Below are positions 195 through 61,938 of a stretch of DNA of 64,000 bases, one piece after another. The DNA is from Xestospongia muta (taxonomy: Eukaryota > Porifera > Demospongiae > Haplosclerida > Petrosiidae), in the NCBI GenBank assembly GCA_963693285.1, contig OY848917.1, positions 25,850,745 to 25,914,744 on the forward strand. The letters are read 5' to 3'. The notes beneath the pieces are model-generated. The model made no database searches, was not told where the DNA came from, and saw nothing but the letters and a program-made list of their open reading frames with translations. Both the position numbers and the translations under genes were made by a program. How positions within the stretch are numbered: position 1 is the first letter of the stretch; every line of letters starts with the position of its first letter.

Positions 195-2395
195 CATCAT
201 CATCAATAATGGTCAAAATAACAATAGATGGTACACCAAAAGTCACATCATTTCTTGGAACAAGTTCAACACCAAATGTTTCATCAGATTCAAATGTAGC
301 ATCATCCATAAACACAAATGAAGCATCTGCAAATGTCTGACCAGAAACAAAGACGACTGTCTGGGTTTGTGATACGAGGTCACCACTAGGTCCAACTGTA
401 GAGTAGTATATTATAATATATTGACTTTATATATGTAGCTCTGTGAATCTCTTTATGACATGTTAAAGTATTAAAATGCTAAGAAATTCTTAACTTTACC
501 GTCACTTCAATAATAAATAAGGCTATACTTTTCTTTATAAATTAGATATTACTTTAAACTAATTATATAATATTATTATTTAAACTAACTTGTTGCTTTA
601 TTTTGTCCAGCTAAAATTAAACATAAAAAGAAAGAAAACATTGTTAATCAGATATTCACTACAACATTAAACATGACTTACATGTAGTAAATGTTCTTAA
701 GTTTACATTTGATGATTGACTAACATCTCCTGATCGGTATACTCGAACAATCATTGGCCCTTGACTATTTTCTAGTGCTGATTTGTTAACCGCAACAAGT
801 GAGTAGAATGTCTCTATTTGTTGAAAGACTATAGAGAAGGTTAAATGTTCATATACCACTCACCTCCTATAGGATTCATACCAAATCCAGCTGGATAGGC
901 ATATCCTTTTTCAGTTCGCCAACCGTATACAATAACATTAATTGAAGCATTAGGGTTTGTATGTTGAACTGTATGAGTACCGATGTTAACTCTCTTACTA
1001 ATACCATAACCACATGGATCATTTTGACTGCAGTCGATAATACTCCATTTAGTAACATTAGGTTCTAATGGTGTACCATCTAGTAATATGTCATTAGGAA
1101 CAAAGTACCTTGCTAACACAGTCACTGATATGTAGTGAGATGTGAAATCATCATTTTCCCTAGTATACATACTTACGTTAGTAGTAAAGATATGATGGTT
1201 CAAATACTGGCTTATTGGAGCTACTAAAACCATATTAGGATCACCAAATTGAATGTTATTATCATGTTCGTGTGAGAAACCATACTGCATAACAAGCAAG
1301 GGTCGCTCAGACTGGACAAAACAATAAGATTGACTGTTTAACTCAAACGTTTGCCTGTTGTCTACATTCGTTTCATTGAATTTAAAGTTTGAGATGATAA
1401 TGTTTGTTCCATCAGAGCAATATACTTTGAACGAAGTGCCTTTGTACCTTGGCCAGACCTTAAATACATAACCTGTTCTTTCTTCATATGGAGCCACAAA
1501 AAAGTTATAGCCCCACGTATAAGATGGAGGTATCTGTTCAACGATATGATCACAGGTATCTTCACCTTCTTGTATTTCTGCACATTCATGTCCAGTCATG
1601 AAACCAATTGGTTGATTAGAGATAGCCCGAAAACCTGTAAAATCATATTGGTCTGACGTTTGTAACCCAAGAGTATTATATTGACTCATCATTGCAGAAA
1701 AAAAATCTCCACTTGCAGGATTGGCGAATTCACCTTTTATGTAAGAACTTACTACTAAAAACGAAACTTCATTTTCAGTTGAATATCTAATATCATTTTC
1801 AGCTATGTCACCACAAGCAACTACAGCTACCATACTGTTAAAGCTTCGTGCTGATGCAGTTAGACTAGCATATTCATATGTGAAATTTGATCTATATTGT
1901 ATTATTGGAATAGCTAGAAAACCATCACTAGAACCAAAAGAATCACTAAATCCCATCACTTGAATTGCTTGACTTGAATTAGTTGTTTCCACAATAATAC
2001 CAACTGAAGTTGTCGCTGTATTCACTTCTTGTACATTTGGTGTCACATATTCTTCCCGTACAATTGTTCCTGCCGTGACTGTACCTGTCCTTGTATAGCC
2101 ACTACTGCCAGATCGAATTTTGTAACCAACTGGATTTTCATTTTGCGTTGTTATAAAAATTCCTATATTTCTAGGAACTTCACCACCACCACGTTCTATG
2201 TTTGGTATGTTTCTGATGAAAGCAAAACAAAAGAAATTCCCTTCATGAGAGACATCCATGGAGATACCTAGGAAATGCATAATACGAAATGTATATTTAT
2301 CAAGTGTCATTATTACCTCTGGTTCGTTTGTCAATGTCCACAACAGCACTGCAGAACCAATTCAGTAACATCAAGATGACAATAACTCTGATCAT
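195..2395 (-). CDS. IgGFc-binding-like/Calx-beta secreted protein, copy 1 (3' end outside window)
   Basis: Exons read on the minus strand: 2317-2395, 864-2267, 682-813, 195-395. The ATG at 2395 is the first after an in-frame stop and opens a hydrophobic signal peptide (MIRVIVILMLLNWFC). A 49-bp GT-AG intron (2268-2316) lies inside a longer accidental open frame. Exon 2 carries an IgGFc-binding-protein N-terminal-like domain with the family-like CDHIVEQIPP..W motif and several cysteines. Exons 3 and 4 form one Calx-beta domain ending in an acidic DDDG turn, followed by a GTAAGA donor. All joins after exon 1 keep frame. Later exons would lie before base 1; by comparison with copies 2 and 4 a linker and a somatomedin B exon are expected. 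Expected location is extracellular. Ligand unknown. Confidence 0.72.
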
Positions 2396-6980: not shown

Positions 6981-8715
6981 AGTTATTTATAAATCCTATG
7001 CTAGCTTAGACCCAGCTATGTTGTTATTGCAAGAACATTTATTAACATTCCAGAAGGCGTGGTTATAAAATGCTAAGCGTTGTCATTCTGTATATGCTCA
7101 TTAATTGTTGCTTGATTTCTAGTTTTGCCATGTTTCTGAAGCAGCAACTGAGTAAGTAATGGTATCATTCAATTGCCAAGCAAGATTAAGTGCTAATTTC
7201 GTGATGAAAAGTTTCTCTGAGTCTTTACATGACCCTTTAAAATGTATCAATATTTCATATACAAAATTTATTGTAGCTTGAAGATGAAACGTTCTTTGGG
7301 AACGTCCCGTAGTACAAATATAAATCGATATATTATCCATTAGTAGCAGTCTTTTTAGTGCTTGGAAACTGTTGTAGCCGAGCATGCGATGAAAACAACT
7401 TTTTTACAGAACTTTTTGATAACAGTCTGAGAACTAATTGAACTAACAACACTATAACGAACTACAACAAAATTACAACGAACTGTAACATATTAAAACT
7501 AAAAAGGTTTTACAGCACTATATATACATACATACATATAAGGTTTTACAATAAAATTAATGATAAAAATCCTCATGGGAGAACCTCTTCTTGAACTTTC
7601 ATAAACTTTAGCTTGCATGTAGCCATCTTTTATTTCTGATTTAATATACTATAACTGCATGAATGTCCTTATGTCCAAAATGTTCTGCTTTATAAATATT
7701 TTTAAACCTTTATTAATTTAGGGAAATATCATGTTGACAAAGCTCAACTATATATCTCTCGTCTAAAAATATGAACAATGTTGTCAATACACTTTCAGTT
7801 CTATTCTTTAGTTCTGTGATATGAATGAGAATAAGGTAGAAATCCTACAAAATCATCAGTAAACAATAGTTGTTATGGAACACTCAATCTATTTATATCT
7901 TTTTACTTGTTTTTGTCCGTTGCTTATAAAAATCATCACTATTGTCTTTAAGAATTTGTTTGCAAGTTTAAAGAGAAAGTAATCTGTCACTTGTCTCCAA
8001 ATACATAACACATATAGAGAATGTACTAACTAGCATTAAAGCTTAAACAATTACAACTATTCCTAGTAATTAAATTAAATTCTTCACTTTGCTCTGCTAT
8101 TGCTGTGATTTGGGATCAGAATAGCATTTCTAAGAACAAGTTGTCAAACTAAACACAATAATAATAATTACATAAAAAAAGTATAACAGCAATACTATTG
8201 TTGCTTAAGCAAATTATGTTATCAAAATGACCACATAAAAGTTTGTTATCAAAAACACGAAAAAATCTAGCTTAAAAAATCTAAATTTTTACTAAAATCC
8301 ACACACATTCTACTTTAATTAATAAGTGCAGTCACACATAGTACTAGTAATGAAGTAGCAAGGAGAGACCTTATCAATTATCTTCATTTACAATTGATAT
8401 AGGATCAGTGTCTGTGTAGCTAATGAAGAATAAATATTTGATAATTATTACATTTTATATAAGAGATAATTCAATAAGTACATATATCAACTATTTCATA
8501 TATTGATGGTCTATATGTGACTAACATAATATGGGAACATGCTTGAGATTGTACAGAATGTGTGATAATGTATTCAAGTGTTATGCTATCAAAGTGACCA
8601 GCACTCTTTGAAGTTCACATTTATCCTTTTCTAGTCCACACACTAAAAATTGTACATGCATTACTGTACTTCATTTCTGGTGAACACTGATGTATTGTAA
8701 GAGCTATTGATTTTC
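6981..8715. other. Intergenic stretch, partly duplicated
   Basis: About 6981-7690 has no clear match elsewhere in the window. It contains one open frame of 88 codons (7119-7385, minus) that I do not recognise. About 8035-8715 matches about 21700-22863 and 56450-57579, the sequence downstream of the other somatomedin B exons. No complete gene seen. Confidence 0.5.
7119..7385 (-). other. Unrecognised 88-codon open frame
   Basis: The translation is not low-complexity and has mixed polar and hydrophobic composition with four cysteines, unlike the TA-repeat frames nearby. I see no domain and no signal peptide. It lies in the only sub-stretch here without a second copy in the window. It could be a stray exon from another gene or chance. 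Confidence 0.2.
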
Positions 8716-11700
8716 TTACCATTTGGAATAGCAACCAATATCAGCTATATCACTACAACAATCATTATATTCATGACAGATTTCATCACAGTAGCATCCA
8801 TTATTGTAACATTGTGATGACAAGGACCATTTACAACATCCACAATAGCTCATCTTAAGTGCAGAACATGAACCTGAAATAATATATATGAATACCTTTG
8901 TTTAATTTGTAGTGCTCATTTACCTTGAATAGGTGGTGTAGGTGAAGGTGTGACTGTTATATCTATATAAAAATGACATAAAAATAAATGAATTGTCATG
9001 TAAGGAATAACTATTACATTATTACTTCATGTAATTTATAGCACCTACTTACCAGTTGGTGTAGATGTAGGAGCTATTATACTGCTTAAAGTAAAAGCAG
9101 ATGAGGAAATGTCTGAATGTGGTGTAGTACTGGTTAGAGGAAGTGAAGGTGTGATAGTTGTAGATGTAGTCAAATCTGAAATACCACTTGAAGTGAAAAA
9201 AGATGAAGTACTATCTGGATGTGGTGTAGTACTAGTTGGAGAAAGCGAAAGCGTCGTGATTGTTGGTTTAGGCAAATCTAAAATACTGCTTGAAGTGAAA
9301 GCAGATAAAGAACTTTCTGGATGTGATGTAATACTAGTTGGAGAAAGTGAAAGCGTCGTGATTGTTGGTTTAGGCAAATCTAAAATACTGCTTGATGTGA
9401 AAGCAGATAAAGAACTTTCTGGATGTGATGTAATACTAGTTGGAGAAAGCGAAAGTGTCGTGATTGTTGGTTTAGGCAAATCTAAAATACTGCTTGAAGT
9501 GAAAGCAGATAAAGAACTTTCTGGATGTGAGGTAATACTAGTTGGTGAAAGCGAAAACGTCATGATTGTTGGTTTAGGCAAATCTAAAATACTACTTAAA
9601 GTGAAAGCAGATAAAGAACTTTCTGGATGTGAGGTAATACTAGTTGGTGAAAGCGAAAACGTCGTGATTGTTGGTTTAGGCAAATCTAAAATACTGCTTG
9701 AAGTGAAAGCAGATAAAGAACTTTCTGGATGTGATGTAACACTAGTTGGTGAAAGCGAAAACGTCGTGATTGTTGGTTTAGGCAAATCTAAAATACTGCT
9801 TGAAGTGAAAGCAGATAAAGAACTTTCTGGATGTGATGTAATACTAGTTGGTGAAAGCGAAAACGTCGTGATTGTTGGTTTAGGCGAATCTAAAATACTG
9901 CTTGAAGTGAAAGCAGATAAAGAACTTTCTGGATGTGATGTAATACTAGTTGGTGAAAGCGAAAACGTCGTGATTGTTGGTTTAGGCGAATCTAAAATAC
10001 TGCTTGAAGTGAAAGCAGAAGAACTTTCTGGATGTGGTGTAATACTAGTAAACAAAGGTGTGATAGTTGTGCCTATATAATAATGGTAACAAAAAGTACA
10101 ATTTTTATAACATGCAAGGAATAATGATCATATTAGTAATTGCATATAATTACTATTTTATATATGAATTATTGGAAAAGACTAGAATTTAAGAATTATT
10201 AATTAAATGTGATCTTAAAGAGAATTATGAAAATAATGTTTTGCCATAGAATGAAATTATGAGTGACATGCAATGATAAAGCATTTTAAAGTTAATGACA
10301 GATTGTTATTATAATAAAAATTCTCCACAATAGTAATATTAATGATTTTAAATTTCCAAGTGAAGTTTGTAAAATAAAGTTCATGAACTCATGAAATGAG
10401 GAATTTCATTACATTGTTCTCTTTTCACTTCCTGGTTGTGTAGTGTGTCATGCAGTACCATAATGGTATTGCTGAAAGTAACAATCAAAATATTGAATAA
10501 AATTAAATTCTTTTTCCACCCACTCAATAGCTAACAAAGAATTTTGTCTGAAAGTGGCCTTTAGTCAGGTTCTTAGGTTTTTGTGTTAGAAAAGCTCTAG
10601 GTCCCAAGTAGGATTTGAAATAAAAGTTTCTTGATAGTGATAATATTAACAGCACTCATTTCCGAAACCACACCTTTTGGCAATATTTCAATTATTAGTA
10701 CAATTCGTTTTCGAGACCACACCCATTGTGCAATTATCAAACCACGTATTATAGTATTAAACGAAATGGCAGTCAAACTCCATTGCTTCTTCCCTGAAAA
10801 AAATCAACGAAAACCTCTAAATAGTCAGAAGAACAAACTGGTGTGTAAGTACCTATACTCACGTTCTACGGTTTTCACTTGTAGGACTTCAAATAAAACA
10901 GAATCTATTATCCACATACCTTATTATGTCCGTAATTTGTGTCGGCAAGAGTTACAAAAAATAAAAAAAAGCACAAAAATATCGTGAGTTTAAAAGTTTA
11001 AAAAATTACAGTGTTATGCAAATCTTTACAATCATTATTATTAAATAACTCTACAACAACTGAAACAATTATTTGAAAGGACCGCCATGAAAAGATCATT
11101 ATTTAACAAGTATATATCATAGTTGATTGTCACTATTGTTTTGATTGCTATAGACTGTATGGTTTTGACACTTCACTAATGACTTCTAAATAAGGAACTA
11201 GGAAGTGCTGCTAATAACACTAAAATCGTAACAGCCCTTACACAGTTACACACAAAACATGGAACTTCTGTTAAGACTCTTTGTCTAGCTAATAAGATCA
11301 ATCAGAATTGTCTTATAATTAGCTCTAATAAATAACTACAAAGCTATCAAGAATCAATCAGTATATATAGGTAATAAAATCAATATGATATTATGTATAA
11401 TATGCAACATACAAAGTATTGTAGTATCACAACATGATTCTACTGAAGTATTAAGTGTATATGTTAATAATAGAATGATTTTAACTGGTAGTTCATAGTC
11501 ACTGATTTAGCTTGTAATGTATGCTTTCCCAAACACAATATACTCTGTTTTAATTATTACTTACTATCATAGTAAGTAATAATCAAATTTGTTCTCAACC
11601 AATTAATTAACAAATAATTGACCACACCTTCCATGAATATATAATTAGCTGGAAACTTTTTTTGCGGCGCTTCGCGCGCTAATACTCCAACCGGACCAAT

Positions 11701-14045
11701 AATAAATTGCTTCCGCTGGCCCTGCTATGGAGCTTCACAGTTTATATACGACTTATCAAAAATGGACACGTGTATAGTATGTTCTGTAAATTCTATTGTA
11801 ACAATTGTTATACACCTGATAACTAATGGGATTACAAATTTCTTACCATCATCATCAATAATGGTCAGTATAACACTGGATGGTACACCAAAAGTCACAT
11901 CATTTCTTGGAACAAGTTCAACACCAAATGTTTCATCAGATTCAAGTGTAGCATCATCCATGAACACAAATGAAGCATCTGCAAATGTCTGACCAGAAAC
12001 AAAGACGACTTTCTTGGTTTGTGATTTGAGGTCACCACTTTGTCCAACTGTAGAGTAATATATTATAATATATTGACTTTATATATATAGTTCTGTGAAT
12101 CTATTTATGACATGTTAAAGTATTAAAATGCTAAGAAATTCTTAACTTTACCGTCACTTCAATAATAAATAAGGCTAAACATTTCTTTATAAATTAGATA
12201 TTACTTTAAACTAATTATATAATAATATTATTTAAACTAACTTGTTGCTTTATTTTGTCCAGCTAAAATTAAACATGAAAAGAAAGAAAACATTGTTAAT
12301 CAGATATTTACTACAACATTAGACATAACTTACATGTAGTAAATGTTCTTAAGTTTACATTTGATGATTGACTGACATCTCCTGATCGATATACTCGAAC
12401 AATCATTGGCCCTTGGCTATTTTCTGGTGCTGATTTGTTAACCGCAACAAGTGAGTAGAATGTCTCTATTTGTTGAGACTATAGAGAAGGTTAAATGTTC
12501 AAATACCACTCACCTCCTATAGGATTCATACCAAATCCAGCTGGATAGGCATATCCTTTTTCAATTCCCCAACCATATACAATAACATTAATGGAAGCAT
12601 TAGGGTTTGTATGTTGAACTGTATGAGTACCGATGTTAACACTCTTACTAATACCATAACCACATGGATCATTTTGACTGCAGTCGATAATATGCCATTG
12701 AGTAACATTAGGTTCTAATGGTGTACCATCTAGTAATATGGCATTAGGAACAAAGTACCTTGCTAACACAGTCACTGATATGTAGTGAGATGTGAAATCA
12801 TCATTTTCCCTAGTATACATACTTACGTTAGTAGTAAATATATGATGGTTCAAATACTGGCTTATTGGAGCTACTAAAACCATATTAGGATCGCCAGTGT
12901 TATTATCATGTTCGTGTGAGAAACCATACTGCATAACAAGCAAGGGTCGCTCAGACTGGACAAAACAATAGGATTGACTGTTTAACTCAAACGTTTGCCT
13001 GTAGTCTACATTCGTTTCATTGAATAGAAAGTTTGAGATGATAATATTTGTTCCATCAGAGCAATATACTTTGAAGGAAGTGCCATTATACCTTGGCCAG
13101 ACCTTAAATACATAACCTGTTCTTTCTTCATATGGAGCCACAAAAAAGTTATAGCCCCATGTATATGATGGAGGTATCTGTTCAACGATATGATCACAGG
13201 TATCTTCACCTTCTTGTATTTCTGCACATTCATGTCCAGTCATGAAACCAATTGGTTGATTAGAGATAGCCCGAAAACCTGTAAAATCATATTGGTTTGA
13301 CGTTTGCAAACCAAGAGTATTATATTGACTCATCATTGCAGAAAAAAAATCTCCACTTGCAGGATTGGCGTTTCCACCTTTTATGTAAGGACTTATTACA
13401 AAAAAAGGATCTTCATTTTCAGTTGAATATTTAATATCGTTTTCAGCTATGTCACCACAAGCAACTACAGCTACCATACTGCTACTGTTAAAGCTTAGAG
13501 CTGATGCAGTTAGACTAGCATATTCATATGTGAAATTTGATCTATATTGTATTATTGGAATAGCTAGAAAACCATCACTAGAACCAAAAGAATCACTAAA
13601 TCCCATCACTTGAATTGTTTGACTTGAATTAGTTGTTTCCACAATAATACCAACTGAAGTTGTCGCTGCATTCACTTCTTGTACATTTGGTGTCACATAT
13701 TCTTCCCGTACAATTGTTCCTGCTGTGACTGTACCAGTCCTTGTATAGCCACTACTGCCAGATCGAATTTTGTAACCAACTGGATTTTCATTTTGCGTTG
13801 TTATAAAAATTCCTATATTTCTAGGAGCTTCTTCACCGCCAGGTTCTGTGTTTGCTTTGTTTCTGATGAAAGCAAAACAAAAGAAATTCCCTTCATGAGA
13901 GACATCCATGGAGATACCTAGGAAATGCATAATACGAAATGTATATTTATCAAGTGTCATTATTACCTCTGGTTCGTTTGTCAATATCCACAACAGCATT
14001 GCAGAACCAATTTAGTAACATCAAGATGACAATAACTCTGATCAT
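8716..14045 (-). CDS. IgGFc-binding-like/Calx-beta/Ser-Thr repeat/somatomedin B protein, copy 2 (complete model)
   Basis: Seven exons on the minus strand: 13967-14045, 12514-13917, 12334-12465, 11847-12047, 9053-10072, 8924-8962, 8716-8873. They sum to 3033 nt, an exact frame of 1010 codons plus TAA. All introns are GT-AG and every one after exon 1 fits in phase; the last exons are phase 1. Order: signal peptide (about 1-17), IgGFc-binding-like domain (about 27-490, CDHIVEQIPP motif), Calx-beta (about 495-605), Ser/Thr/Pro-rich tandem repeats (606-945), a 13-aa Pro/Thr linker, and a cysteine-rich somatomedin B domain (959-1010, CDEICH..NDCCSD). Likely secreted or matrix-bound. The roughly 1.8-kb intron 4 carries repeats and an insertion. 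Splicing of the repeat exon to the Calx-beta exon is inferred from phase and order, not from transcripts. Confidence 0.7.
9115..10055 (-). repeat. 102-bp tandem repeat encoding a 34-aa Ser/Thr/Pro unit
   Basis: Unit starts on the plus strand fall at 9115, 9217, 9319, 9421, 9523, 9625, 9727, 9829, 9931 and 10030: a strict 102-bp period except for one 3-bp shorter unit. On the minus strand each unit reads SPTSITSHPESS...PKPTITT, mucin-like and a probable O-glycosylation platform. The array lies wholly within exon 5 of IgGFc copy 2. Central units are nearly identical, which suggests recent expansion. The opposite strand is also open (9109-10080) but lacks splice context. Confidence 0.9.
10073..11846 (-). 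other. Long intron of IgGFc copy 2 with repeats
   Basis: This sequence lies between the Calx-beta exon and the repeat exon. About 10400-10990 matches about 36350-36950 and 58400-59000, and inverted about 63600-63780. About 11110-11530 is a copy of the dispersed repeat. An insertion at about 11572-11732 starts with a short perfect palindrome. The 118-codon frame at 10631-10987 lies in this repeat and is broken in the sister copies, so I do not call it a gene. Confidence 0.5.
11572..11732. mobile_element. Short insertion with palindromic edge
   Basis: Compared with 59600-59640 (TTACTATGGAACTTCACAG), copy 2 is interrupted after TTACTAT. The start is a palindrome (ATTATTACTTACTAT and its reverse complement around one base, 11556-11587). 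The insert holds a locally GC-rich motif (GCGGCGCTTCGCGCGC) and a segment starting CTCCAACCGGACC that also occurs at about 58-88. Probably a small non-autonomous element or repair patch; no terminal inverted repeats proven. Confidence 0.4.
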
Positions 14046-21700: not shown

Positions 21701-22863
21701 TAAGGCTTAAACAATTCCAATTGTTCATCTTAATTACATTATAGTGTTCACTTAATTGTGCTTCAACTAGCATTTAGTATCAAATGATACTAAAATTGTA
21801 ATTAAAGGATTTCATCAACAAAATACAGAATCTGTCAATAATACAATAAAAAATGAGCTTTGCTAGCTGATGCACAAAAGAGCAAAAGAGCAACAATAAT
21901 ACTGATATATCTTGTGTTAGCTTTATTGCAATACTTTCATCTGATGTCATGACATGAAGGTATTGCAATAAATTCAACACAAATTATATTGGTGATATAG
22001 CAACACTGCAATACTTATTTTTAAATGAAGCTATATATCACGTACTGTATCTATATCGATATATCTATGTGTATTTTATTATCTCATTATATAGGCTTAT
22101 TAGAGGGTACTACTGATATAGATGTTCAGGTTACTAGTACTAATACAGTAACTACCACTATGATTATTTATCAAAACAACATAGGTAACAACATGTTGGA
22201 TAAACATACACAATAATAATAATTATATCAAGAAAATTTATAACTGCAATAGTTTTGCTTTTTAAATAAAAACAAGTTGTAAAATGACAACATAAAAGTT
22301 TGTTGTCAAAATAGACAATGACAATAGTTAAAATACCTCTAGCTAAAAAAATAAACATTTACTAAAAGTCACACATATATTTTTACTTTAATTAATAAAT
22401 TTATCTGCAAATATTAATATTTAGGGATGAAACAAGGAGAGAGGTGCATCAATTGTTATTAAAGAAGTATTGGAGGTTCAGTTTCTGTGTGTATAATAAA
22501 GATATACTAATAAATAGTTAATAATTATTTTATCTTGTAAGAGATAATTTTGTAATTACATGTATATACAACAATGTCATAAACATGGACTATATATATA
22601 TGAAATATTTAAAAAAATTATAAATTATGGTTATTAGTTCATAGGTATCAGCACCCATTTAAGTTATCATGTACCCTCCACTACATGCTGAAGTCCTTTT
22701 TAGATCAATCCTAGCACAAGCATATTTATAATAGATTTTAAAAAATAATTGACTACATGACTGTAAATAATTTCATTTTTATGCACTTGTGACTTGTGTG
22801 CTTTGTATTTCTTTATCTGGTGAAAATTGATGTTTTTAATGAGTAAGCTATTGATTTGTCTTA
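18737..22863. other. Long intergenic stretch, duplicated at 53502-57579
   Basis: No gene is supported. It has partial dispersed repeat sequence (about 19850-20560) and a 71-nt foldback at 21912-21982. Short frames here are broken or absent in the sister copy. The last part (21700-22863) also matches about 8035-8715, so it is the common downstream flank of the somatomedin B exons. Confidence 0.55.
21912..21982. repeat. 71-nt foldback hairpin, eroded copy
   Basis: Arms around a TATTGCAATA core with a 9-nt loop. The outer stem has several mismatches, unlike the nearly perfect copy at 56643-56713. Absent from the third related flank near 8100. Confidence 0.6.
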
Positions 22864-24580
22864 CTAGTTTGAGTAGCAACCAATATCAGCTATATCACTA
22901 CAACAATCATTCCATATGTGACAGTTTTCATCACAATAGCATCCATTATGAGAACATTGTGTTGACAAGAACCATTGACAACATCCATAATAGCTGAGAT
23001 TAAGTGCTAAACATGAACCTAAATAAATAAATAGACGTTTTAACACCTTGTAGTGATTTTCAGTGCTTATTTACCTTGTACACGTTGTGTAGGTGAAGGT
23101 GTGATTGTTGTGCCTATATAAAAAATGATAATAATAATGATGATTTTTATATAATGCAAGTGATAGTTATCACATCAGTAATTATATATTATTACTTCTT
23201 CATACATGAACTTTATGAAAAAATAATAAAACTTCTAATGATAGTGATTTTTAAGACAAACATGAAAAAAACATTATTTAAGATGAAATACAGTTCAATT
23301 TAAGAAATATAACATAAGCGTTAGTCTTGACTGTGATATCTTTTACAAAATCGCTGTTTGGAGGTTTATATAACAAATATATATTGATGAACTGTCATAT
23401 ATCTGATAAAACTTATCATGTGATTCATACTAACCTGTTGCCTCTGCTCAATACTCCATAATATAGCATATGGGCACTGAGCAATATTTTTAAAAATCTC
23501 AGATTGGCATATTTATAACACTTATAGACTTGTCAATAATGATAGAACCAATAAACCTTGTAAAGATGGTCTATATAAGCTGTTTAAACTATTAGGTACA
23601 ATATTACCAAGTACTAACATACTATGTATGAGGTCTATGCCTGCTTTATAGAACCATCACTCAAATGTATGGGTTATCAATCTTATCACAAGACATTATA
23701 ACATACAATGGATAATTACCACATTAGTATTTGAATATGGATATTACTTCATACATGAACTGTTAGAAAATTTTTTTATAAATAGAATTATTTTCTTGAC
23801 TAAACTTATATAGTGAACAACAAGTAGTACAATAATTTAGAAACTACTTTCATCAACTTTTATTATTGACATTTAATTTTGACAATGAGTGAAGTCTTGA
23901 TTTATTATGGAAGTAAACCTAGTCACTTAGTATACGCATTGTTTACTAGTATTTACTTAGAGTAATAGTTTCTGTATGTTTGACTGCATGTAGTAGATGA
24001 AGTGTCCATTAAAGAAGAAGTGGCAGCACATCATTGTCATTTATTAATATTTGAGCACACTCTTTTTATTTAGTTTTAATTATATCTTTTATTACGAATT
24101 CTGTCTTTTGATTATGTATTACTACTTAAATGGTCAATAAATGATTCTTTTAAAGTTTTTGTTTATAATTATAACGGTTAATGTCAAAACTTTGGTAGTG
24201 ATTTTAGCCAGCAAGCCAATAAAATTATTATTTAATGTAACATTTACACAATATACTTACAGTTAGGTATAAAACAAATTATTAGTTGTAACATAAATTG
24301 CATCAGTCAGGTTTAGAGTTACATTGTTAGAGAGTGTATGAATTGTTTACTACCATTTACCTAGTGTAATAGCTTGAGTAGGTGTGGTTATAAGAGATAA
24401 AGTGTCAATGAAGGAAGAAATATCAGCAAATGAAATTCTTGCTGAGAATAGCACACTATTTGTTGATGACTGAGGAGTTTCACTATTAGTTTCTGAAGAT
24501 AAATAATATTAGTAAGAAACATGTTAACAGATTCCAATCTTGTAGTTAAAATAAATTAAATTGTCCTTTCACTTACTTTC

Positions 24581-24631
<51 letters not shown>

Positions 24632-26294
24632 GTATGTATGCATGTATGTATGTATGTATTTACCTAGTGTAATAGCTTGAGTAGGTGTGGTTATAAGAGA
24701 TAAAGTGTCGATGAAGGAAGAAATATCAGCAAGTGAAATTCTTGCTGAGAATAGCATACTATTCATTGATGGCTGAGGAGTTTCACTATTAGTTTCTGAA
24801 GATAAAATGATATTAGTAAGAAACATGTTAAGTGAACGGATTCAAATGTTGTAGTTAAAAAATAAATTAAAATTGACCTTTCACTTATTTTCATTATTTA
24901 TATGTCATTACAATGCCTTTAAAAGAGACAAGGTTATGTTACATCATTTAACATAATCATGAGCTGCATTAAATGCATGCAATCTGATGCATACAGCATT
25001 ATTGATATGTCACGGAAAGATGAATTTTACATCAAAACTATGATATGATTTAGTCAATAACTTTATTTTTCAATCATAACCAATAGTTGTTATGTTAGCA
25101 TTTATATACAGTTATTTGTTTATTAAGTCATTTTTACAAAGGACTTTAAACAAAAAAACATTGATGTTCACATATTTTGCATTGACTGCCATCCATTCTT
25201 TCTGTCAGAGTAAAAACTGCTATTAGTTAAAACAGTAAACTGTATGAATGGGGCCATAATTTAAAACATTACTAAACTCTAAAGCATATTGAATACACAT
25301 TGTATTGACCTCTAAAGGATATTGGCACTTCTAACAAAAAAAGCATAAGCATCATAAATGTTTTAAAAGAGTAATTCCCATTCACTAATTACACCTTCTA
25401 GAACTTCACACATTATATAAAAAGAAAAGAGCTTGTTAAGTGGTGTTTGGATTTATTATAAATAATAAATTTTTGATTTATTGTTTTCTCTAATATTTAT
25501 TAAGTGTTACCTTCATTTAGATTATAGACTACATTTGACCATACAGATGATGGATAATTAAAGCAGTCAACGTCAGTAACTCTTGATGTTCTAGATAATG
25601 GATGATTTGCAAACTTGTTATGTCCAGCACTATAGCCAATTGCTGCATTGTTCCTAGTCCATTGCAGAAGATCACATTTATAAGTAAATATAGCATAAGA
25701 AGTTGATCCTTGAGATGCTATCACAACCTGAAATGTGTTTGTCTATGAAGAAAGAGTGCATGATGATACATTTGGAAAAAATATAGAATAATTTACTTGA
25801 GCACAATAGCTATTTCCATATGGACAGACATTTGTCCACTTTGCTACAAAAACCCAATCTAAGTCTAAATCAACACCTTGGTTTAGCTTCAAGAACCCTT
25901 CTACTTTATTGATGATAATTGATGTACTTGCTGAAGTGACAATCCCATACTCAACTATTCCTGTATTTGTCAATATGATATCATCCCAAAATGGAGCCAT
26001 CACTACTGCAAATGGAAGCGGGAATGATGTTGGTAAAAAGCTTGTGAATGATGTTCCAAAACTAAGTAGACCATTAGAGCTTATCTACATCAAAGTAAAA
26101 GCTAATATTATACTATAATAGACAACAAATAAACCTTACATATAAAGTATGATAAGTGCTTCTTCCAAAAATAAATAAAGAAGGAAGTCCAACAGCTCTA
26201 GTACCATCATCAATATTACTAAATACGTTAGCTTGTAAGCCAAGATCAAGGAAAGTTAAATATTTGGAACTCATTCCAGATCCAGAGACAAAGT
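22864..26294 (-). CDS. NIDO / Ser-Thr-rich / somatomedin B secreted protein (5' end unresolved)
   Basis: Minus-strand exons: 26140-26294, 25797-26084 and 25511-25742 (one NIDO domain), 24664-24795 and 24361-24492 (two 44-codon Ser/Thr-rich exons), 23075-23113 (Pro/Thr linker), 22864-23018 (somatomedin B, TAG stop). All have GT-AG borders, fit in phase, and have no internal stop. The NIDO part shows SNGLLSFG, APFWDD and TFQVVIASQG..YAIFTYKCDLLQWT, typical of the nidogen-type extracellular domain. Somatomedin B keeps eight cysteines (CDENCH..NDCCSD). Linker and last exon are homologous to those of the IgGFc genes. No signal peptide exon was found upstream, where an inversion junction at about 29331 cuts the sequence. 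A further Ser/Thr exon (26677-26808) and another NIDO set may belong to the same transcript. Confidence 0.6.
23960..24030 (-). pseudogene. Relic of a Ser/Thr-rich exon
   Basis: Similar to the 3' half of the 132-bp Ser/Thr exons at 24361 and 26677. The last exon base before the donor differs and the acceptor end is lost. Probably skipped. Confidence 0.35.
24580..24660. repeat. TA/TATG microsatellite
   Basis: A long (AT)n tract followed by (ATGT)n, inside the intron between the two Ser/Thr exons. The same compound repeat adjoins the related exon at 27720, so exon and repeat were duplicated together. Confidence 0.85.
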
Positions 26295-30366: not shown

Positions 30367-30435
<69 letters not shown>

Positions 30436-53501: not shown

Positions 53502-56500
53502 TGTACACGTTGGACCACGCCTCCAAAAACGAATATGCTGCAATAAATACTAATAGTGCTCACTAGATTGTTTTTAATGTCATATAAAACAAGGAAACAT
53601 GAAATAGTTGTGGCACTCTGCTCAATAGATAACTGTGAGGTGGATTCATGAGATTTATAACATGAAACAGATACATTATTATGTTAAAACAATAAACTAA
53701 TTATAATATTCTCCTTTCTTCCTTTGAAATTATTGCTAAAACTCTAATATCATTGTACTAGTCAATCAATATTTAACAATAAAGTAAATATATTCAAAAA
53801 CAATTACATATAAGTATTTTTAAATGTAATATAGTTTTGCACTAGACTAGACTGTATCAAGTAAAAATTACATATTCAGTAAATAATAATAGAAAGTATC
53901 TAGACCTTGAAACAATATTTAGAATTAATATTATTAATATCAATTATTATTGATTTTTAGTAAATGCACCATTATGTAAAGTTAATAAATATTTAAAATG
54001 CTGTTTGTAGAAGTGTCAACTACGGATAGCAATGTTCTTACTAAAGAACAAGACATGGAATTTTTTCTAGAGGAAGTACCAATGAAATGTTGAAATGAAA
54101 ACATTTATATTGACCAATATATGTTTTAGTTGTGATGTACAATATTAAGTGAATGTAATGTGATACCTACCTTAATGTCACCTGAAAATGTTCTTTTACA
54201 GTAGTAGGCTCGAAAGAATAAATGTTAGTTGCATAGACCTTTTCAAATTACTTCACAATTTTTAATAAGTTTGTTCCTGATACATGATAATTACAATTTT
54301 GGATAATTGTCTTCCTTGTCAATCATAAGATCAAATTAGAGGATTGAAATGAATATTGTGATTATGTGCATGCACATTTGTTAATGCTGTGAAAAAATCC
54401 TTTTTTATGCATTATTACAGTTCTGTGCAATTATTTAATTAGTTAACAAATTACAAATTTCTAGTGATACACATATATAAAATCAAAACCATTATTTCAA
54501 GCTCATAAAGACATAACATCATAGATATGACATCATTAGTCATTATTAGTAGTCATCATTAGTAGGACTTTCACTTGACTGTAATTAACTAATAATGAAT
54601 AATTAACTATAGGACTGTCAAATATCTATCAGTATATTGTATTTATAAGTAATGAAACCAGTATGATGTTATAATGATGTGCAACATGCAAAGTATAGAC
54701 ATTAGAATCATGACTCTACTAAACTATTAAATATATGCAGCAATAAATGCAAAAGGTGCAATCACTAAAAATTATTGAAATTGAGTTTGTAAATAGTTTT
54801 AAAACATTCTTTACTAAGACTACATTTAATTTCAAAGGATAAAAAGAACTTACTATTCCCAGGTACATTATCTAGAATTTTATAAAATATATTTAATTGT
54901 TTTATGGTTTTTAGTTTGTATTGAAAAGAAATATACATTTTCCTATTTTTTGCATTTATGGTACATCACTGTTATAATAGACTTGTTAATACTGAGTCAC
55001 TTGTCTTGAAAATGTATGCTTTCACAGAATCAAAATACATTGTTTTGATTATTACTTGCTATTGAACTTCACAGTTTATTACTTAAAACACATGATTTCT
55101 TGAAAAGAACATGTGTGTAGCATATGTTCTATTAATTCTATTATAAGAAATGTTAATACAATGACGAAGTAAGATTACAAAATGAAAACACACAGGCCCA
55201 AAATCCATAAAAGGTTTGTTTAAAAACATGAAGATAAGTAAAGATTTTTGTCCTGTGTCAAGGCCAACACTTAAAATAGCTAAATTTAGTTAAACTTTTT
55301 AACTATTGTTTTGCATGTAAGTAATATGATAATTTAATACACTATATACTATAACTGATGATTTATTTGGCAACCAATGGTTTCATTCATCAAGCTAGGT
55401 GAAGGCAAAAATGGTGTTATATCATCAAATAGAAATATGAAACACATAAAACCTAATTCAAGAAAGTTGCTATATAATTAAGAATCATGAGTTTCTTACT
55501 TAAAACACGTCTTTAAAAGACATCAGGCACAGTATTCTGGATTGATGAGAAGGGGTTTGTGCATTTTTAGTTGGATGTTGGTTCAATTTCAATTTCATCG
55601 TCTCTAGTTCCTTTTGTACTCTGAAGCTCTTGCCACTTTTGTCATATTCTAATTTATTTGGGTCTAAATTTCTTAACATTGCTAGTATAAACTGAAATAA
55701 CCAATGTGAGTTAACAGACTTCCAATAACATTTTACATTTTACATGGAAAAATATAGAACTGAGATCCATAAGCTTATGGGTTTATGGTTAATGTCTAGG
55801 ATTGAGAACCCAGGAGTTAGTGTCTAGAAAGCCTTTCGTGAGCCTTTATATACCTATTGTAGGTTGATGACTTAATACATTTCTTGTCTGTACTCTGCTG
55901 GAGCATGTCATCAACTGTGAGTTCCACAATGATGGTATGATGACCATAATAATACGGTTCAGATTTCTTGATGCTTCACGTCTTTGCCAATCATTATTTT
56001 TACCATTCTGATCTTCAATAGATTCTTTTATTAATTTTGGTAGCATTAGTCAATGTCGCACTGTGCATGAAGTAAGTACCTTCCAAACCAACTACATATA
56101 CAATGATTATCTCCCAATGGTAACCTTGACTACAATACCACATTTATCATATTATTAATCAAAAAATACTACATTTATAAAATAGCTGTTTAAGATATTA
56201 GTAAGTATATGTGACAATGAATGCTAAAATAGTATATTTTATTAAAATTGTTAAATCTAAGGTTATAATGTTTCTAAGTCATTATTTAGTTAGGCCTACA
56301 GTTTATTTGAATGATGAAAAGGACTTACTATTCTGAAGTTATATTGTCTAGAATTTTACATTAATTATAAAAATAAAGGAAAATCAGCACCTTTTCTATA
56401 AAAAACACAATAAGTATAAAGAGTAGCTTTTAAGGTTTAAACAATTCCAACTGTTCATCTTAATTACATTATAGTGTTCACTTAATTGTGCTTCCACTAG

Positions 56501-57579
56501 CATTTAGTATCAAATGTTTCTAAAATTGTAATTAAAGGATGTCATCAACAAGATACAGAATCTGTCAATAATACAATAAAAAAATGAGCTTTGCTAGCTG
56601 ATGCACAGAAGAGTAAAAAAGCAACAATAATACTGATATATCTTGTGTTGGCTTTATTGCAATACTTTCATCTGATGTCATGAGATGAAGGTATTGCAAT
56701 AAAGCCAACACAAATTATATTGGTGATAAGCAACATTGCAATAATTATTATTAAATGAAGATATATATCATGTACTGTATCTATATTGATATATCTATGT
56801 GTATTTTATTATCTCATTATAGGCTTATTAGAGGATACTACTTGTCTAGCTGTTCATGTTACTAGTACTAATACAGTAACTACCATTATGAATATTTATC
56901 AAAACAACATAGATAATAACATGTTGTCTAAACATACACAATAATAATAATTATATCAAGAAAATCTATAACAGCAATAGTTTTGTTTTTAAAATAAAAA
57001 TAAGTTGTAAAATGACAACATAAAAGTTTGTTGTCAAAATAGATAGTTAAAATAAATCTAGCTAAAAAAAAACATTTACTTAATGTCACACACATATTTT
57101 TACTTTAATTAATAAATGCATCTGCAAATAGTAATAGTTAGGGATGAAACAAGGAGAGAGGTGCATCAATTGTTATTAATGAAGTATAGGAGGTTCAGTT
57201 CCTGTGTGTATAATAAAGATATACTAATAAATAGTTAATAATTATTTTATCTTGTAAGAGATAATTTTGTAATTACATGTATATACAACAATGTCATATA
57301 CATGGACTATATATATATGAAATATTAAAAAAAATTAAAAATTGTGGATATTAGTTCATAGGTATCAGCACCCATTTAAGTTATCATGTACCCTCCACTA
57401 CATGCTGAAGTCCTTTTTAGATCAATCCTAGCCGAGCATATTTATAATAGATTTTAAAACATAATTGACCACATGATTGTGAATAATTTCATTTTCATGC
57501 ATTTATGAGTTGTGTACTTTGTATTTCTTTATCTGGTGAACATTGATGTATTTTATGAGTAAGCTATTGATTTGTCTTA
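53502..57579. other. Long intergenic stretch, duplicated at 18737-22863
   Basis: No gene supported. It is collinear with copy A throughout. Contains the near-perfect 71-nt foldback at 56643-56713 and part of the dispersed repeat (about 54600-55300). The 66-codon frame at 55846-56046 is not conserved in the sister copy. Confidence 0.55.
56643..56713 (+). ncRNA. 71-nt near-perfect hairpin (possible small-RNA precursor or foldback element)
   Basis: 31-nt arms (left begins TTGTGTTGGCTTTATTGCAA) around a 9-nt loop. The only non-Watson-Crick position is T opposite G, which is a G-U wobble if the plus strand is transcribed and an A-C mismatch if the minus strand is. The eroded sister hairpin is at 21912-21982. 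A miniature foldback transposon is the alternative. Confidence 0.4.
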
Positions 57580-60500
57580 CTAGTTTGAGTAGCATCCAAT
57601 ATCAGCTATATCACTACAACAATCATTCCATTTGTGACAGTATACATCACAATAGCATCCATTATTATCACAATGTGGTGACAAGAACCATTTACAACAT
57701 CCAGAATAGCTGAGATTAAATGCTAAACATGAACCTAAATAAATAAATAGACGTTTTAATACCTTGATGTGATAATTTCAGTGCTTATTTACCTTGTGTA
57801 TGTGGTGTAGGTGAAGGTGTGATTGTTGTGCCTATATAAAAAATGATAGTAATAATGATGATTTTTATATAATGCAAGTGATAGTTATCACATCAGTAAT
57901 TGTATATTATTACTTCTTCATATATGAACTTTATGTAAAAAATAATGAAACTTCTAAACATAGTGATTTTTAAGGCAAACATGAATACAGTTCAATTTAA
58001 GAAATACATCATAGACTGTAGGCTTGACTGTGATATCTTTTGCAAAATCCCAGTTGGCAGGTTTATATAACAAATATATATTGATCAACTGTCATATGTC
58101 TGATAAAACTTATCATGTGATTCATACTAACCTGTTACCTCTGCTCAATACTCCATAATATAGCGTATGGGCACTGAGAAATATTTTTAAAAATCTCAGA
58201 TGGGCATATTTATAACACTTATAGACTTGTCAATAAAGATAGAACTAACAAAGCTTGTAATGATGGTCTATATAAGCTGTTTAAACTATTAGGTACAATA
58301 TTACCAAGTACTAACATACTATGTATGAGGTCTATGTGTACATTATAGAACTATCACTCCCGTTCAAATGTATGGGTTATCAACACATTATAGTTCGTGA
58401 ACACATGAAATGAGGAATTTCATTACGTTGTTCTCTTTTCACTACCTGGTCGTGCAGTGTGTCATGCAGTACCATAATTGTATTGCTGAATGTAACAATC
58501 AAAATATTGAATAAAATTAAATTCTTTTTCCACCCACTCAATAGCTAACAAGAAATTTGTCTGTAAGTTGCTTATAGTCAGGTTCTAAGGTTTTTTGTGT
58601 GAGGAAAGCTCTAGGTCGCAAGTAAGTTTTGAAGAAAGCGTTTCTTGATAGATGATAATAAATATTAACAGCACTCAGATAATTCCTTCCGAAACTACAC
58701 CTTTTAGAATTATCTCAATTATTCGTTTTCGAGACCACACCTATTGTGCAATTATCAAACCACTTAAACGAAATGACAGTCACTAAGGACAAACTGACTC
58801 TATTGCTTCTTCCCCGAAAAAATCAACGAAAACATCCAAATAGCCAGAGAATCATCACTGGTGTGTAAGTACCTATACTCACATTCAACGGTTTTCACGT
58901 TAGGTGAGTTTGGGGCACTTGTAGGACTTCAAAGAAAACAGAATCTTTTATCTACACAACTTATCATGTCCATAATTTGTGTCCGCAAGAGTTACAATAA
59001 TACCAAAAAGAGAAGAAATATCGTGAGTTTAAAAGTTTAAAAAAGTTACAATATTAAATCTTTATAATCATTATTATAAAATAACTCTACAACAACTGAA
59101 ACCACTGTTTGAAAGGGATATAGCCATGAAAACCCCCTTAATAAACAATTACATATCATAGTAGATTGTTACTATATTGTTTTGATTGCTATAGATTATA
59201 TGGTTTTGACTCTTCGCTAATAACTTCTAACGAAGGAAATAGGAAGTGCTGTCTAATAACACTAAAATTGTGACATTACTTACACAGTTACACACACAAA
59301 ACATGGAACTTCTGTTAAAACTCTTTTGTCTAGCTAATGAGATCAATCAGAGTTGTCTAATAATTAGCTCTAATAAATAACTACAAGGCTATCAAGCATC
59401 AATCAGTATATATAGGTAATAAAATCAATATGACATTATGTATAATATGCAACATACAAAGTATTGGTATCACAATATGTTTCTACTGAAGTATTAGGTG
59501 TATCTGTTAATAATAGAATGATTTTAACTGGTTCAAATTTACTGAATTAATTTGTCATGTATGCTTTCCCAACCACAATATATACTGTTTTGATTATAAC
59601 TTACTATGGAACTTCACAGTTTATATACTTAAATATACAACTTATCAAAAATGGATATGTGTATAGCATGTTCTGTAAATTCTATTATAACAAATGTTAT
59701 ACACCTAATAACTAATGAGATTACAAATTACTTACCATCATCATCAATAATGGTAAGTATAACACTGGATGATACACCAAAAGTCACATCATTTCTTGGA
59801 ACAAGTTCAACACCAAATGTTTCATCAGATTCAAGTGTAGCATCATCCATGAACACAAATGAAGCATCTGCAAGTGTCTGACCAGAAACAAAGACGACTG
59901 TCTGGGTTTGTGATACGAGGTCACCGCTAGGTCCAACTGTAGAGTAATATATTATAATATATTGACTTTATATAGCTCTGTGAATCTCTTTATGACATGT
60001 TAAAGTATTAAAATGCTAAGAAATTCTTAACTTTACTGTCACTTCAATAATAAAAAAGGCTATACATTTCTTTATAAATTAGATATTACTTTAAACTAAT
60101 TATATAATAATATTTAAACTAACTTGTTGCTTTATTTTGTCCAGCTAAAATTAAACATGAAAAGAAAGAAAACATTGTTAATTAGATATTCACTACAACA
60201 TTAGACATAACTTACATGTAGTAAATGTTCTTAAGTTTACATTTGATGATTGACTGACATCTCCTGATCGATATACTCGAACAATCATTGGCCCTTGACT
60301 ATTTTCTGGTGCTGATTTGTTAACTGCAACAAGTGAGTAGAATGTCTCTATTTGTTGAAAGACTATAGAGAAGGTTAAATGTTCATATACCACTCACCTC
60401 CTATAGGATTCATACCATATCCAGCTGGATAGGCATATCCTTTTTCACTTCGCCAACCATATACAATAACATTAATGGAAGCATTAGGGTTTGTATGTTG

Positions 60501-61938
60501 AACTGTATGAGTACCGATGTTAACTCTCTTAGTAATACCATAACCACATGGATCATTTTGACTGCAGTCGATAATATGCCATTGAGTAACATTAGGTTCT
60601 AATGGTGTACCATCTAGTAATATGGCATTAGGAACAAAGTACCTTGCTAACACAGTCACTGATATGTAGTGAGATGTGAAATCATCATTTGCCCTAGTAT
60701 CATTTACCCTAGTATACATACTTACGTTAGTAGTAAAGATATGATGGTTCAAATACTGGCTTATTGGAGCTACTAAAACCATATTAGGATCGCCAGTGTT
60801 ATTATCATGTTCGTGTGAGAAACCATACTGCATAACAAGCAAGGGTCGCTCAGACTGGACAAAACAATAAGATTGACTGTTTAACTCAAACGTTTGCCTG
60901 TCGTCTACATTCGTTTCATTGAATAGAAAGTTTGAGATGATAACGTTTGTTCCATCAGAACAATATACTTTGAAGGAAGTGCCATTATACCTTGGCCAGA
61001 CCTTAAATACATAACCTGTTCTTTCTTCATATGGAGCCACAAAAAAGTTATAGCCCCATGTATAAGATGGAGGTATCTGTTCAACGATATGATCACAGGT
61101 ATCTTCATCTTCTTGTATTTCTGCACATTCATGTCCAGTCATGAAACCAATTGGTTGATTAGAGATAGCCCGAAAACCTGTAAAATCATATTGGTTTGAC
61201 ATTCGCAAACCAAGAGTATTATATTGACTCATCATTGCAGAAAAAAAATCTCCACTTGCATCTGTGGCGTTTCCACCTTTTATGTAAGGACTTGTTACAG
61301 AAAACGCATCTTTATTTTCAGTTGAGTATCTAATATCATTTTTAGCTATGTCACCACAAGCAACTACAGCTACCATACTGTTAAAGCTTAGTGCTGATGC
61401 AGTTAGACTAGCATATTCATATGTGAAATTTGATCTATATTGTATTATTGGAATAGCTAGAAAACCATCACTAGAACCATAAGAATCACTAAATCCCATC
61501 ACTTGAATTGTTTGACTTGAATTAGTTGTTTCCACAATAATACCAACTGATGTTGTCGCTGCATTCACTTCTTGTACATTTGGTGTCACATATTCTTCCC
61601 GTACAATTGTTCCTGCTGTGACTGTACCAGTCCTTGTATAGCCACTACTGCCAGATCGAATTTTGTAACCAACTGGATTTTCATTTTGCGTTGTTATAAA
61701 AATTCCTATATTTCTAGGAGCTTCTCCAAAACCAGATTCTATGTTTGGTTTGTTTCTGATGAAAGCAAAACAAAAGAAATTTCCTTCATGAGATACATCC
61801 ATGGAGATACCTAGGAAATGCATAATACGAAATGTATATTTATTAAGTGTCATTATTACCTCTCGTTCGTTTGTCAATGTCCACAATAGCATTGCAGAAC
61901 CAATTCAGTAACATCAAGATGACAATAACTCTGATCAT
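57580..61938 (-). CDS. IgGFc-binding-like/Calx-beta/somatomedin B protein, copy 4 (complete model)
   Basis: Six exons on the minus strand: 61860-61938, 60398-61810, 60216-60347, 59736-59936, 57793-57831, 57580-57734. They sum to 2019 nt, exactly 672 codons plus TAG. Order: signal peptide (MIRVIVIL), IgGFc-binding-like domain (to about 497), Calx-beta (about 498-608), 13-aa Pro/Thr linker, somatomedin B (622-672, CDVYCHKWNDCCSD). It lacks the Ser/Thr repeat exon of copy 2, so the Calx-beta exon would splice across about 1.9 kb to the linker. An in-frame 4-codon duplication (VNDTRAND) is unique to this copy. A TATA-like box lies at 61967-61973, 29 nt from the ATG. Secreted; ligand unknown. Confidence 0.72.
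58387..59735. other. Intron of copy 4, first part repeated elsewhere and inverted
   Basis: Matches 10390-11846 and about 36350-36950. About 58860-59640 is also present in reverse orientation at 63004-63780. Includes a dispersed repeat copy. No exon recognised. Confidence 0.6.

What the first reader, a model, noticed from the sequence alone, without database searches (positions are those of the whole stretch)
8716..14045. Possibly undescribed architecture: IgGFc-binding + Calx-beta + Ser/Thr repeat + somatomedin B
Two complete models (here and 57580-61938) sum to exact frames across six or seven GT-AG exons and end in a somatomedin B domain. The domains are individually known. I am not aware of this order being named, and it combines a mucus-type IgGFc module with a Calx-beta domain of the kind found in sponge aggregation factors. 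Extracellular recognition or matrix roles are inference.
Basis: partly seen in the sequence, partly recalled or inferred. Interest (0 to 1): 0.8.

Follow-up and report, generated by a model that had tools for sequence, protein, structure and literature searches.

The report
Sponge IgGFc–Calx-beta genes, swappable tails
A sponge chromosome carries a small tandem family of genes that look like secreted proteins with a mucus-type head, a calcium-binding-type spacer, a mucin-like stalk of varying length and a cysteine-rich tail; close relatives of the head sit on other tails elsewhere in the genome, and the same kind of tail sits on quite different heads next door, so this animal seems to build extracellular proteins by swapping parts.

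Summary
The gene models hold. Gene A (14045-8716, minus strand, 7 exons, 1010 aa) and gene B (61938-57580, 6 exons, 672 aa) splice in frame at GT-AG introns, all phase 1. Copies 0 and D share A's junctions; four of four complete copies have no internal stop. IgGFc_binding is certain; Calx-beta is marginal. The tail is only 'SMB-like': a ten-cysteine module whose C-terminal half alone matches somatomedin B (9-10 bits, cut-off 23.1). Gene B lacks the Ser/Thr-repeat exon and is a chimera: its last two exons and 3' flank match the end of a neighbouring NIDO gene at 91.7% over 2.4 kb. The SMB-like exon is a shared tail with at least 150 places: in the local cluster the nearest upstream head found is NIDO for 29, S8 protease for 10, IgGFc-Calx for 4 of 52. 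The head recurs at 82-86% in a 27-copy array on C7, where one of three sampled members reads as a transmembrane receptor with three Calx-beta stretches. Best reading: secreted, mucin-like recognition or matrix proteins made by exon shuffling. No transcript was seen.

The parts
13967..14045 (-). Gene A exon 1: ATG and signal peptide
   Evidence: hydrophobic window at residue 1, KD 2.12
12514..13917 (-). Gene A exon 2: N-terminal beta-sandwich plus IgGFc_binding head (PF17517)
   Evidence: 133.4 bits, cut-off 25.6; pLDDT 86.8, pTM 0.90
12334..12465 (-). Gene A exon 3: first half of Calx-beta
11847..12047 (-). Gene A exon 4: second half of Calx-beta, ending in DDD
   Evidence: 29.0 bits alone, cut-off 27
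9053..10072 (-). Gene A exon 5: Ser/Thr-rich stalk of 102-bp (34-aa) tandem repeats; its length differs between copies
   Evidence: D1; 351-aa stalk with exon 6, 48% S+T
8924..8962 (-). Gene A exon 6: short Thr/Pro linker
8716..8873 (-). Gene A exon 7: SMB-like cysteine-rich tail with stop
61860..61938 (-). Gene B exon 1: signal peptide
60398..61810 (-). Gene B exon 2: IgGFc head
   Evidence: 135 bits
60216..60347 (-). Gene B exon 3: Calx-beta first half
59736..59936 (-). Gene B exon 4: Calx-beta second half
   Evidence: 17.9 bits in the whole protein, below cut-off 27
57793..57831 (-). Gene B exon 5: short linker, NIDO-gene type
57580..57734 (-). Gene B exon 6: SMB-like tail, NIDO-gene type
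56000..58383 (-). Part of gene B (3' end and flank) matching the end of the NIDO gene at 21265-23680, 91.7% over 2427 columns
58389..59607 (-). Part of gene B intron 4 with 84% and 86% matches to A and D; much of it is a dispersed repeat, so the exchange point lies somewhere between 58383 and about 59604
195..2395 (-). Copy 0, exons 1-4 (2317-2395, 864-2267, 682-813, 195-395); exons 5-7 lie left of the window in L010 (8766-9074, 8637-8675, 8429-8586); 773 aa
46822..47983 (-). Copy C: truncated IgGFc head; the later splice sites were not found
22864..26294 (-). Neighbouring gene with NIDO head, two exons that look Ser/Thr-rich, linker and SMB-like tail (exons 26294-26140, 26084-25770, 25727-25511, 24795-24664, 24492-24361, 23113-23075, 23018-22864); 5' end not determined
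   Evidence: NIDO 79 bits, cut-off 25

Best explanation
These are members of a sponge gene family for secreted, mucin-like extracellular proteins. A signal peptide sends the protein out; the IgGFc-type beta-rich head is the binding part; one Calx-beta domain spaces it; a Ser/Thr-rich stalk of variable length holds it away; and the ten-cysteine SMB-like tail is a compact disulphide unit that anchors the protein in, or cross-links it to, the matrix or mucus. The family arose by exon shuffling at phase-1 introns: a closely related head is joined elsewhere to more Calx-beta units and, in one sampled gene, to a transmembrane segment, while the same kind of tail is joined next door to NIDO and subtilase heads. 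Shown by sequence: exon chains, domain matches, shared tails, chimeric gene B, copy-number and stalk-length differences. Inferred: joint transcription of head and tail, secretion, glycosylation, the binding role of the head, the anchoring role of the tail, and recognition of microbes or non-self rather than a purely structural role.
For: Four of four complete copies keep frames and splice sites. Head dN/dS is 0.50-0.75 over six pairs, so the frame is under some constraint. Variability in the head is concentrated in residues 181-240 of copy A: ten-residue entropy blocks of 0.83, 1.10, 1.29, 1.46, 0.47 and 1.13, against 0.07-0.92 in the other blocks (39 sequences: four copies and P0001-P0035, of which P0001 and P0002 are near-duplicates of B and A and most others may be C7-type heads). 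Stalks of 351, 114, 145 and 11 aa, 46-55% S+T. No hydrophobic window above 1.6 beyond the signal peptide in the four copies, while the A. queenslandica relative P0047 has one of 2.49. Tail exchange in B. Same kind of tail on NIDO and S8 heads, in frame. SMB-like exons lie 3' of IgGFc heads more often than 5': 27 of 132 listed heads have one within 10 kb downstream on the same strand, 5 of 132 upstream (the window's own heads are not among the 132); NIDO groups 36 of 102 downstream, 13 of 102 upstream. Membrane form of a related head in one of three sampled C7 members.
Against: No transcript or protein evidence. Intron 4 between Calx-beta and the stalk is long (1774 and 1904 bp) and holds a dispersed repeat, so it is the weakest junction. 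105 of 132 listed IgGFc hits have no listed SMB-like exon within 10 kb downstream (both lists are truncated), so the link is not general. In the eight other IgGFc/SMB-like loci read (L028-L035) no Calx-beta match to the window's exons was found. The SMB-like fold could not be modelled (pLDDT 48.8). dN/dS below 1 for the whole head does not show diversifying selection; some Calx-exon pairs reach 1 or more, on very few changes. No ligand is known.
Confidence: 0.6

Rival explanations
1. Two neighbouring genes: an IgGFc-Calx-beta gene ending soon after exon 4, and a separate short Ser/Thr-SMB-like gene; the first reader joined them.
For: Intron 4 is the longest intron. In A and D exon 4 stays open past the donor for about 40 codons. 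One sampled C7 relative (L046) shows Calx-beta and then the next gene, with no tail assigned.
Against: In B the read-through meets a stop within two codons of the donor. The four proteins have no signal-peptide-like hydrophobic window in the stalk or tail. Phase-1 joins are kept in four of four copies and in the B chimera. The same kind of tail joins NIDO and S8 exons in frame.
Confidence: 0.12
2. The proteins are structural mucus or mesohyl components (FCGBP- or lubricin-like) with no recognition role; copy number and stalk length reflect neutral tandem duplication.
For: IgGFc, Ser/Thr-rich stalk and SMB-like parts recall mucus and lubricating glycoproteins (recalled; FCGBP passages); tandem repeats turn over neutrally; most of the head is conserved.
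Against: Localised variability in residues 181-240, a large array, and a membrane form of a related head with a cytoplasmic end.
Confidence: 0.25
3. The C1 copies are degenerate off-shoots of the C7 array that acquired a tail by chance and are not functional.
For: Two broken copies lie in the same cluster (copy C, and the L012 fragment with 2 TGA). Gene B is a chimera.
Against: Four copies are intact with dN/dS below 1 in the head; in the SMB-like exon dN/dS between A, 0 and D is 0, 0.23 and 0.11, though on 5 to 9 changes only.
Confidence: 0.08

Closest known systems
Amphimedon queenslandica predicted protein P0047 (NCBI LOC109589679, 621 aa)
   Same: Signal-peptide-like start, IgGFc head (41% identity over 44% of the query), a Ser/Thr-rich stretch by eye; the segment after the head aligns with the window's Calx-beta region, though Pfam does not call Calx-beta there
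   Different: Ends in a hydrophobic, transmembrane-like segment and a short tail instead of an SMB-like module
Amphimedon queenslandica predicted protein P0060 (NCBI LOC109586454, 1079 aa, partial)
   Same: IgGFc followed by Calx-beta
   Different: Four Calx-beta stretches and a VWA domain; no SMB domain called by Pfam and no Ser/Thr stalk seen by eye
C7 array in the same genome (27 listed copies, 82-86% to the head)
   Same: Related head and first Calx-beta; in L044 the same phase-1 exons up to the membrane exon
   Different: More Calx-beta; L044 has a transmembrane segment; no SMB-like match in L044, L045 or L046
FCGBP of vertebrate mucus
   Same: IgGFc-binding domain at the N-terminus; mucus protein (passages of PMC9354016)
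   Different: FCGBP has tandem vWD-C8-TIL repeats; Pfam finds none in A or B
Sponge aggregation factors
   Same: Calx-beta present (family features recalled; Grice et al. 2017 was not held)
   Different: One Calx-beta only; the group-specific features were not tested
Lubricin/PRG4-type proteins (recalled, not searched)
   Same: SMB-related and Ser/Thr-rich mucin-like parts together
   Different: SMB at the other end (recalled) and no hemopexin-like part called by Pfam

Membership tests
IgGFc_binding (PF17517) | Pfam gathering score 25.6 bits | tested here: met
   133.4 and 135.0 bits
Calx-beta (PF03160) | Pfam gathering score 27 bits | tested here: met
   Domain alone: A 29.0, 0 27.7, D 29.6; not met in the whole proteins A and B: 23.0 and 17.9; B alone not scored; the first Calx of P0060 alone 26.7. 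Na/Ca-exchanger chains are the 5 PDB hits at E up to 1, best E 0.012
Calx-beta (PF03160) | Calcium binding | not testable with these tools
   Acidic residues are present by eye; binding needs an assay
Somatomedin B (PF01033) | Pfam gathering score 23.1 bits | tested here: not met
   8.9 and 9.9 bits for the tails of A and B, 10.2 for a module of L029, no hit for a composite module
Somatomedin B (PF01033) | C-terminal half CxC-D-x2-C-x5-CC | tested here: met
   22 columns align to somatomedin B domains of the same genome, hhalign probability 93, E 2.7e-7 for one comparison
Somatomedin B (PF01033) | Eight-cysteine pattern with N-terminal CxxxC | tested here: not met
   Ten cysteines in 38 of 50 distinct modules, eleven in 11, nine in 1; N-terminal half mostly C-x9-CC-x7-C
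FCGBP | Tandem vWD-C8-TIL repeats | tested here: not met
   None called by Pfam at E up to 1 in A or B
Sponge aggregation factor | Calx-beta arrays with the group-specific C-terminal domain (recalled) | not tested
   No model of that domain was at hand; the window genes have a single Calx-beta
Mucin-like stalk | Ser/Thr/Pro-rich tandem repeats | tested here: met
   A, 0, D: 46-48% S+T and 13-15% P, 102-bp repeats in A; B has only 11 aa
Mucin-like stalk | O-glycosylation | not testable with these tools
   needs glycoproteomics

The most novel reading that the evidence does not exclude
The C1:25.4-26.3 Mb cluster is a combinatorial locus: interchangeable heads (IgGFc-Calx-beta, NIDO, subtilase) share one Ser/Thr-plus-ten-cysteine tail, recombination in introns of equal phase moves tails between heads, and the IgGFc-Calx head also exists as an array of membrane receptors. 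Together they would form a paired receptor / secreted-protein recognition system of a sponge with a variable patch in the head, and the ten-cysteine tail would be an unnamed domain.
Probability: 0.35. Interest if true: 0.78.

Novelty: new variant of a known kind. Interest (0 to 1): 0.6.

Why it matters
Sponges discriminate self, symbionts and food bacteria without antibodies. A cluster in which heads and tails are visibly exchanged, with a related head in membrane-bound form elsewhere, gives concrete genes on which to test how such recognition repertoires arise. It also points to a ten-cysteine module with at least 150 places in one genome that the somatomedin B model misses: none of the places above that model's cut-off is among those 150 (compared by eye).

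Tried and rejected

SMB-like fold: prediction from three window sequences failed (pLDDT 48.8) and was not searched. PDB sequence search with a composite module gave one hit, an endoribonuclease (ENDOU-type), at E 4.4.

Transmembrane exon as an alternative end of genes A, B, D: hydrophobic frames in intron 4 are short and lie in the stretch that matches dispersed repeats; none was seen in 1.7 kb 3' of SMB in A, three in 1.7 kb 3' of B. None convinced me; this is not proof of absence.

A splice-donor-like GTAAGA overlaps the stop of the terminal SMB-like exons, so I considered that this exon is internal. It would be in phase 2 whereas the internal SMB-like exon I modelled ends in phase 1, and a stop at this point is kept in the copies of that type read; a terminal exon is favoured, not proven.

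Search for the SMB-like region in proteins of about 370-1176 aa: 2 candidates, none at E <= 10. With an alignment of ten modules: 339 proteins at E <= 0.01, the 120 listed all from unnamed 'ena' assemblies and without Pfam domains; taxon unknown. NCBIfam gave nothing for two modules.

Polyadenylation-like signals after exon 4 and after SMB did not separate the models.

Paper searches that gave nothing on this architecture: (listings only, apart from passages of PMC8242945, PMC11229196, PMC9354016 and PMC5450542).
Full report
Observation. Spliced by hand, gene A (exons 14045-13967, 13917-12514, 12465-12334, 12047-11847, 10072-9053, 8962-8924, 8873-8716) gives 1010 aa and gene B (61938-61860, 61810-60398, 60347-60216, 59936-59736, 57831-57793, 57734-57580) gives 672 aa, each with a single terminal stop; every intron is GT-AG and in phase 1. 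In gene A the used frame is free of stops in 7 of 7 exons. Repeats within the window showed further copies. Copy 0 starts at 2395 and runs out of the window on the left; its last three exons were read in the adjoining locus L010. Copy D lies to the right, in L013. With A and B that makes four complete copies (A 1010, B 672, 0 773, D 804 aa), no internal stop in four of four. Copy C (about 47983-46822) is truncated, and a further IgGFc fragment with two TGA lies in L012.

Domains. IgGFc_binding is certain (133.4 and 135.0 bits, cut-off 25.6). Calx-beta is below cut-off in the whole proteins (23.0, 17.9 against 27) and above it when the domain alone is given for A, 0 and D (29.0, 27.7, 29.6); solved Na/Ca-exchanger Calx-beta chains are the five sequence matches in the PDB at E up to 1, weak (best E 0.012). 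The last exon does not reach the somatomedin B cut-off (8.9 and 9.9 against 23.1). Of 50 distinct modules collected from fetched loci and the window, 38 have ten cysteines, 11 eleven and 1 nine; only 22 columns of the C-terminal half align with genuine, eight-cysteine somatomedin B domains of the same genome. I therefore call it SMB-like. The Ser/Thr stalk consists of 102-bp repeats in A and measures 351, 114, 145 and 11 aa in A, 0, D and B: gene B lacks the repeat exon, so the two models of the finding do not share one architecture in full.

Gene B is a chimera. From about 59,604 upwards it matches A, D and 0 at 94.9, 94.1 and 93.2%. From 56,000 to 58,383, which covers its last two exons and the 3' flank, it matches window 21265-23680 at 91.7% over 2427 columns, whereas A matches that part only in two pieces, at 71 and 81%. 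Window 21265-23680 covers the 3' end of a gene whose upstream exons encode a NIDO domain (79 bits, cut-off 25) and two exons that look Ser/Thr-rich, joined in phase to a linker and SMB-like tail of the same kind. The part in between (58,389-59,607) matches A and D at 84 and 86% and contains a dispersed repeat found in both orientations in other loci, so the exchange point cannot be fixed more closely than this interval; the repeat is a possible, untested substrate for recombination. A-B silent divergence is 0.043 in the head and 0.28 in the tail, in line with exchange. An assembly chimera is not excluded.

A shared tail. The SMB-like exon of gene A has 150 scored matches in the genome out of 500 candidates, so at least 150. 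In C1:25.4-26.3 Mb, 52 of these lie on the minus strand; the nearest upstream head found is a NIDO exon for 29, an S8 subtilase for 10, an IgGFc-Calx head for 4, and none within 8 kb for 9 (56 of 103 S8 hits, 49 NIDO hits and 6 IgGFc places were entered). Nearness is not proof of one gene. One S8 gene was assembled in frame from L010: propeptide-like first exon with signal-like start, subtilase (125.7 bits, cut-off 21.8), short linker and two SMB-like modules. On C4, two S8 hits have SMB-like exons 3.6, 4.4 and 6.4 kb, and 6.1 kb, from the start of the S8 match on the same strand. Across the genome the association has a direction: 27 of 132 listed IgGFc hits have an SMB-like exon within 10 kb downstream and 5 of 132 upstream; for NIDO groups 36 and 13 of 102. 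Most listed IgGFc hits (105 of 132) have none, and the lists are truncated, so this is a trend and not a rule. In eight loci chosen because both parts were near (L028-L035), two to four SMB-like matches lie downstream of an IgGFc exon, with no match to the window's Calx-beta exons.

A shared head. The IgGFc exon of gene A has four intact matches at 93-100% on C1 (itself included), two broken ones there, 27 at 82-86% in one array at C7:1.84-2.18 Mb (one with a stop), and one at 81% on C10; 91 of 242 candidates were scored. Three C7 members were read in part. L044 assembles in frame from exon 2 to IgGFc, Calx-beta (91.6 bits, three stretches), a short exon, a strongly hydrophobic segment (KD 3.5) and a short cytoplasmic end. 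L045 has more Calx-beta-like exons and runs off the fetched stretch; L046 shows Calx-beta-like exons and then the next gene, with one hydrophobic frame (KD 2.3) that I did not assign. No SMB-like match was found in these three. So a membrane form of the head is shown for one of three sampled members. In Amphimedon queenslandica, P0047 has the head, a Calx-like segment, a Ser/Thr stretch and a transmembrane-like end, and P0060 has IgGFc, four Calx-beta stretches and VWA. By these identities (41% for P0047) the window's species is probably not A. queenslandica.

How it most likely works. The four proteins carry a signal-like start and no later hydrophobic window above 1.6, so secretion is likely. 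The head is a confident all-beta model (pLDDT 86.8, pTM 0.90) with no clear solved counterpart over its length. Among 39 sequences, variability peaks in residues 181-240, the natural place to look for a binding surface; many of these sequences come from unnamed assemblies and may be C7-type heads. dN/dS in the head is 0.50-0.75: constraint, but loose. I propose binding by the head, spacing by Calx-beta and stalk, and anchoring by the SMB-like tail. Secretion and modular origin are supported by sequence; binding, anchoring and an immune or self/non-self role are inference.

Novelty. In the held library one paper has both IgGFc and Calx-beta, PMC8242945 on Halichondria panicea, of which I saw passages: its Figure 1 legend lists both, and a somatomedin B-like domain, among domains of receptor models, without stating this order. 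The figure itself is not held, so I cannot exclude that it draws such a protein. Four papers from 2018 on hold sponge, IgGFc and genome (listing); none holds four of sponge, somatomedin, nidogen, subtilisin, tandem. A passage of PMC11229196 reports a NIDO gene and a separate Calx-beta gene with lower expression in the sponge Dysidea avara after exposure to symbionts, a lead only. Subscription papers are mostly not held. The domains are known and IgGFc with Calx-beta is in public predictions, so I rate it a new variant of a known kind. What I did not find described is the exchange of tails between heads, the receptor/secreted pairing of related heads, and the ten-cysteine module.

Noticed in passing
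window 34137-34949 and 35429-35830 (minus); cluster C1:25.4-26.3 Mb: Tandem S8 subtilase genes with a propeptide-like exon; 33 of the 56 S8 hits entered (103 listed) lie in this cluster.
   Followed up: partly
L010 461-5021: S8 subtilase gene with two SMB-like modules at its end, in frame.
   Followed up: yes
L044 3550-3867 (C7): After the stop of the receptor model an open frame with Tyr/Thr-rich repeats follows in the same frame; its role was not examined.
   Followed up: no
L029-L032, L035: Three or four SMB-like exons in a row downstream of one IgGFc head, many with a Ser/Thr-rich end.
   Followed up: partly
window about 29700-31150: NIDO-type exons seem to lie on the opposite strand too (by eye; a plus-strand NIDO hit at C1:25880459).
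   Followed up: no
window 38380-39701; L014 791-4046: Frames that look like parts of LTR retroelements (by eye).
   Followed up: no
C9:5.147-5.161 Mb, L036: An SMB-like module inside a 462-aa open frame next to a run of NIDO hits.
   Followed up: no
L016 about 7246-9747: Stretch that reads N in the fetched locus.
   Followed up: no
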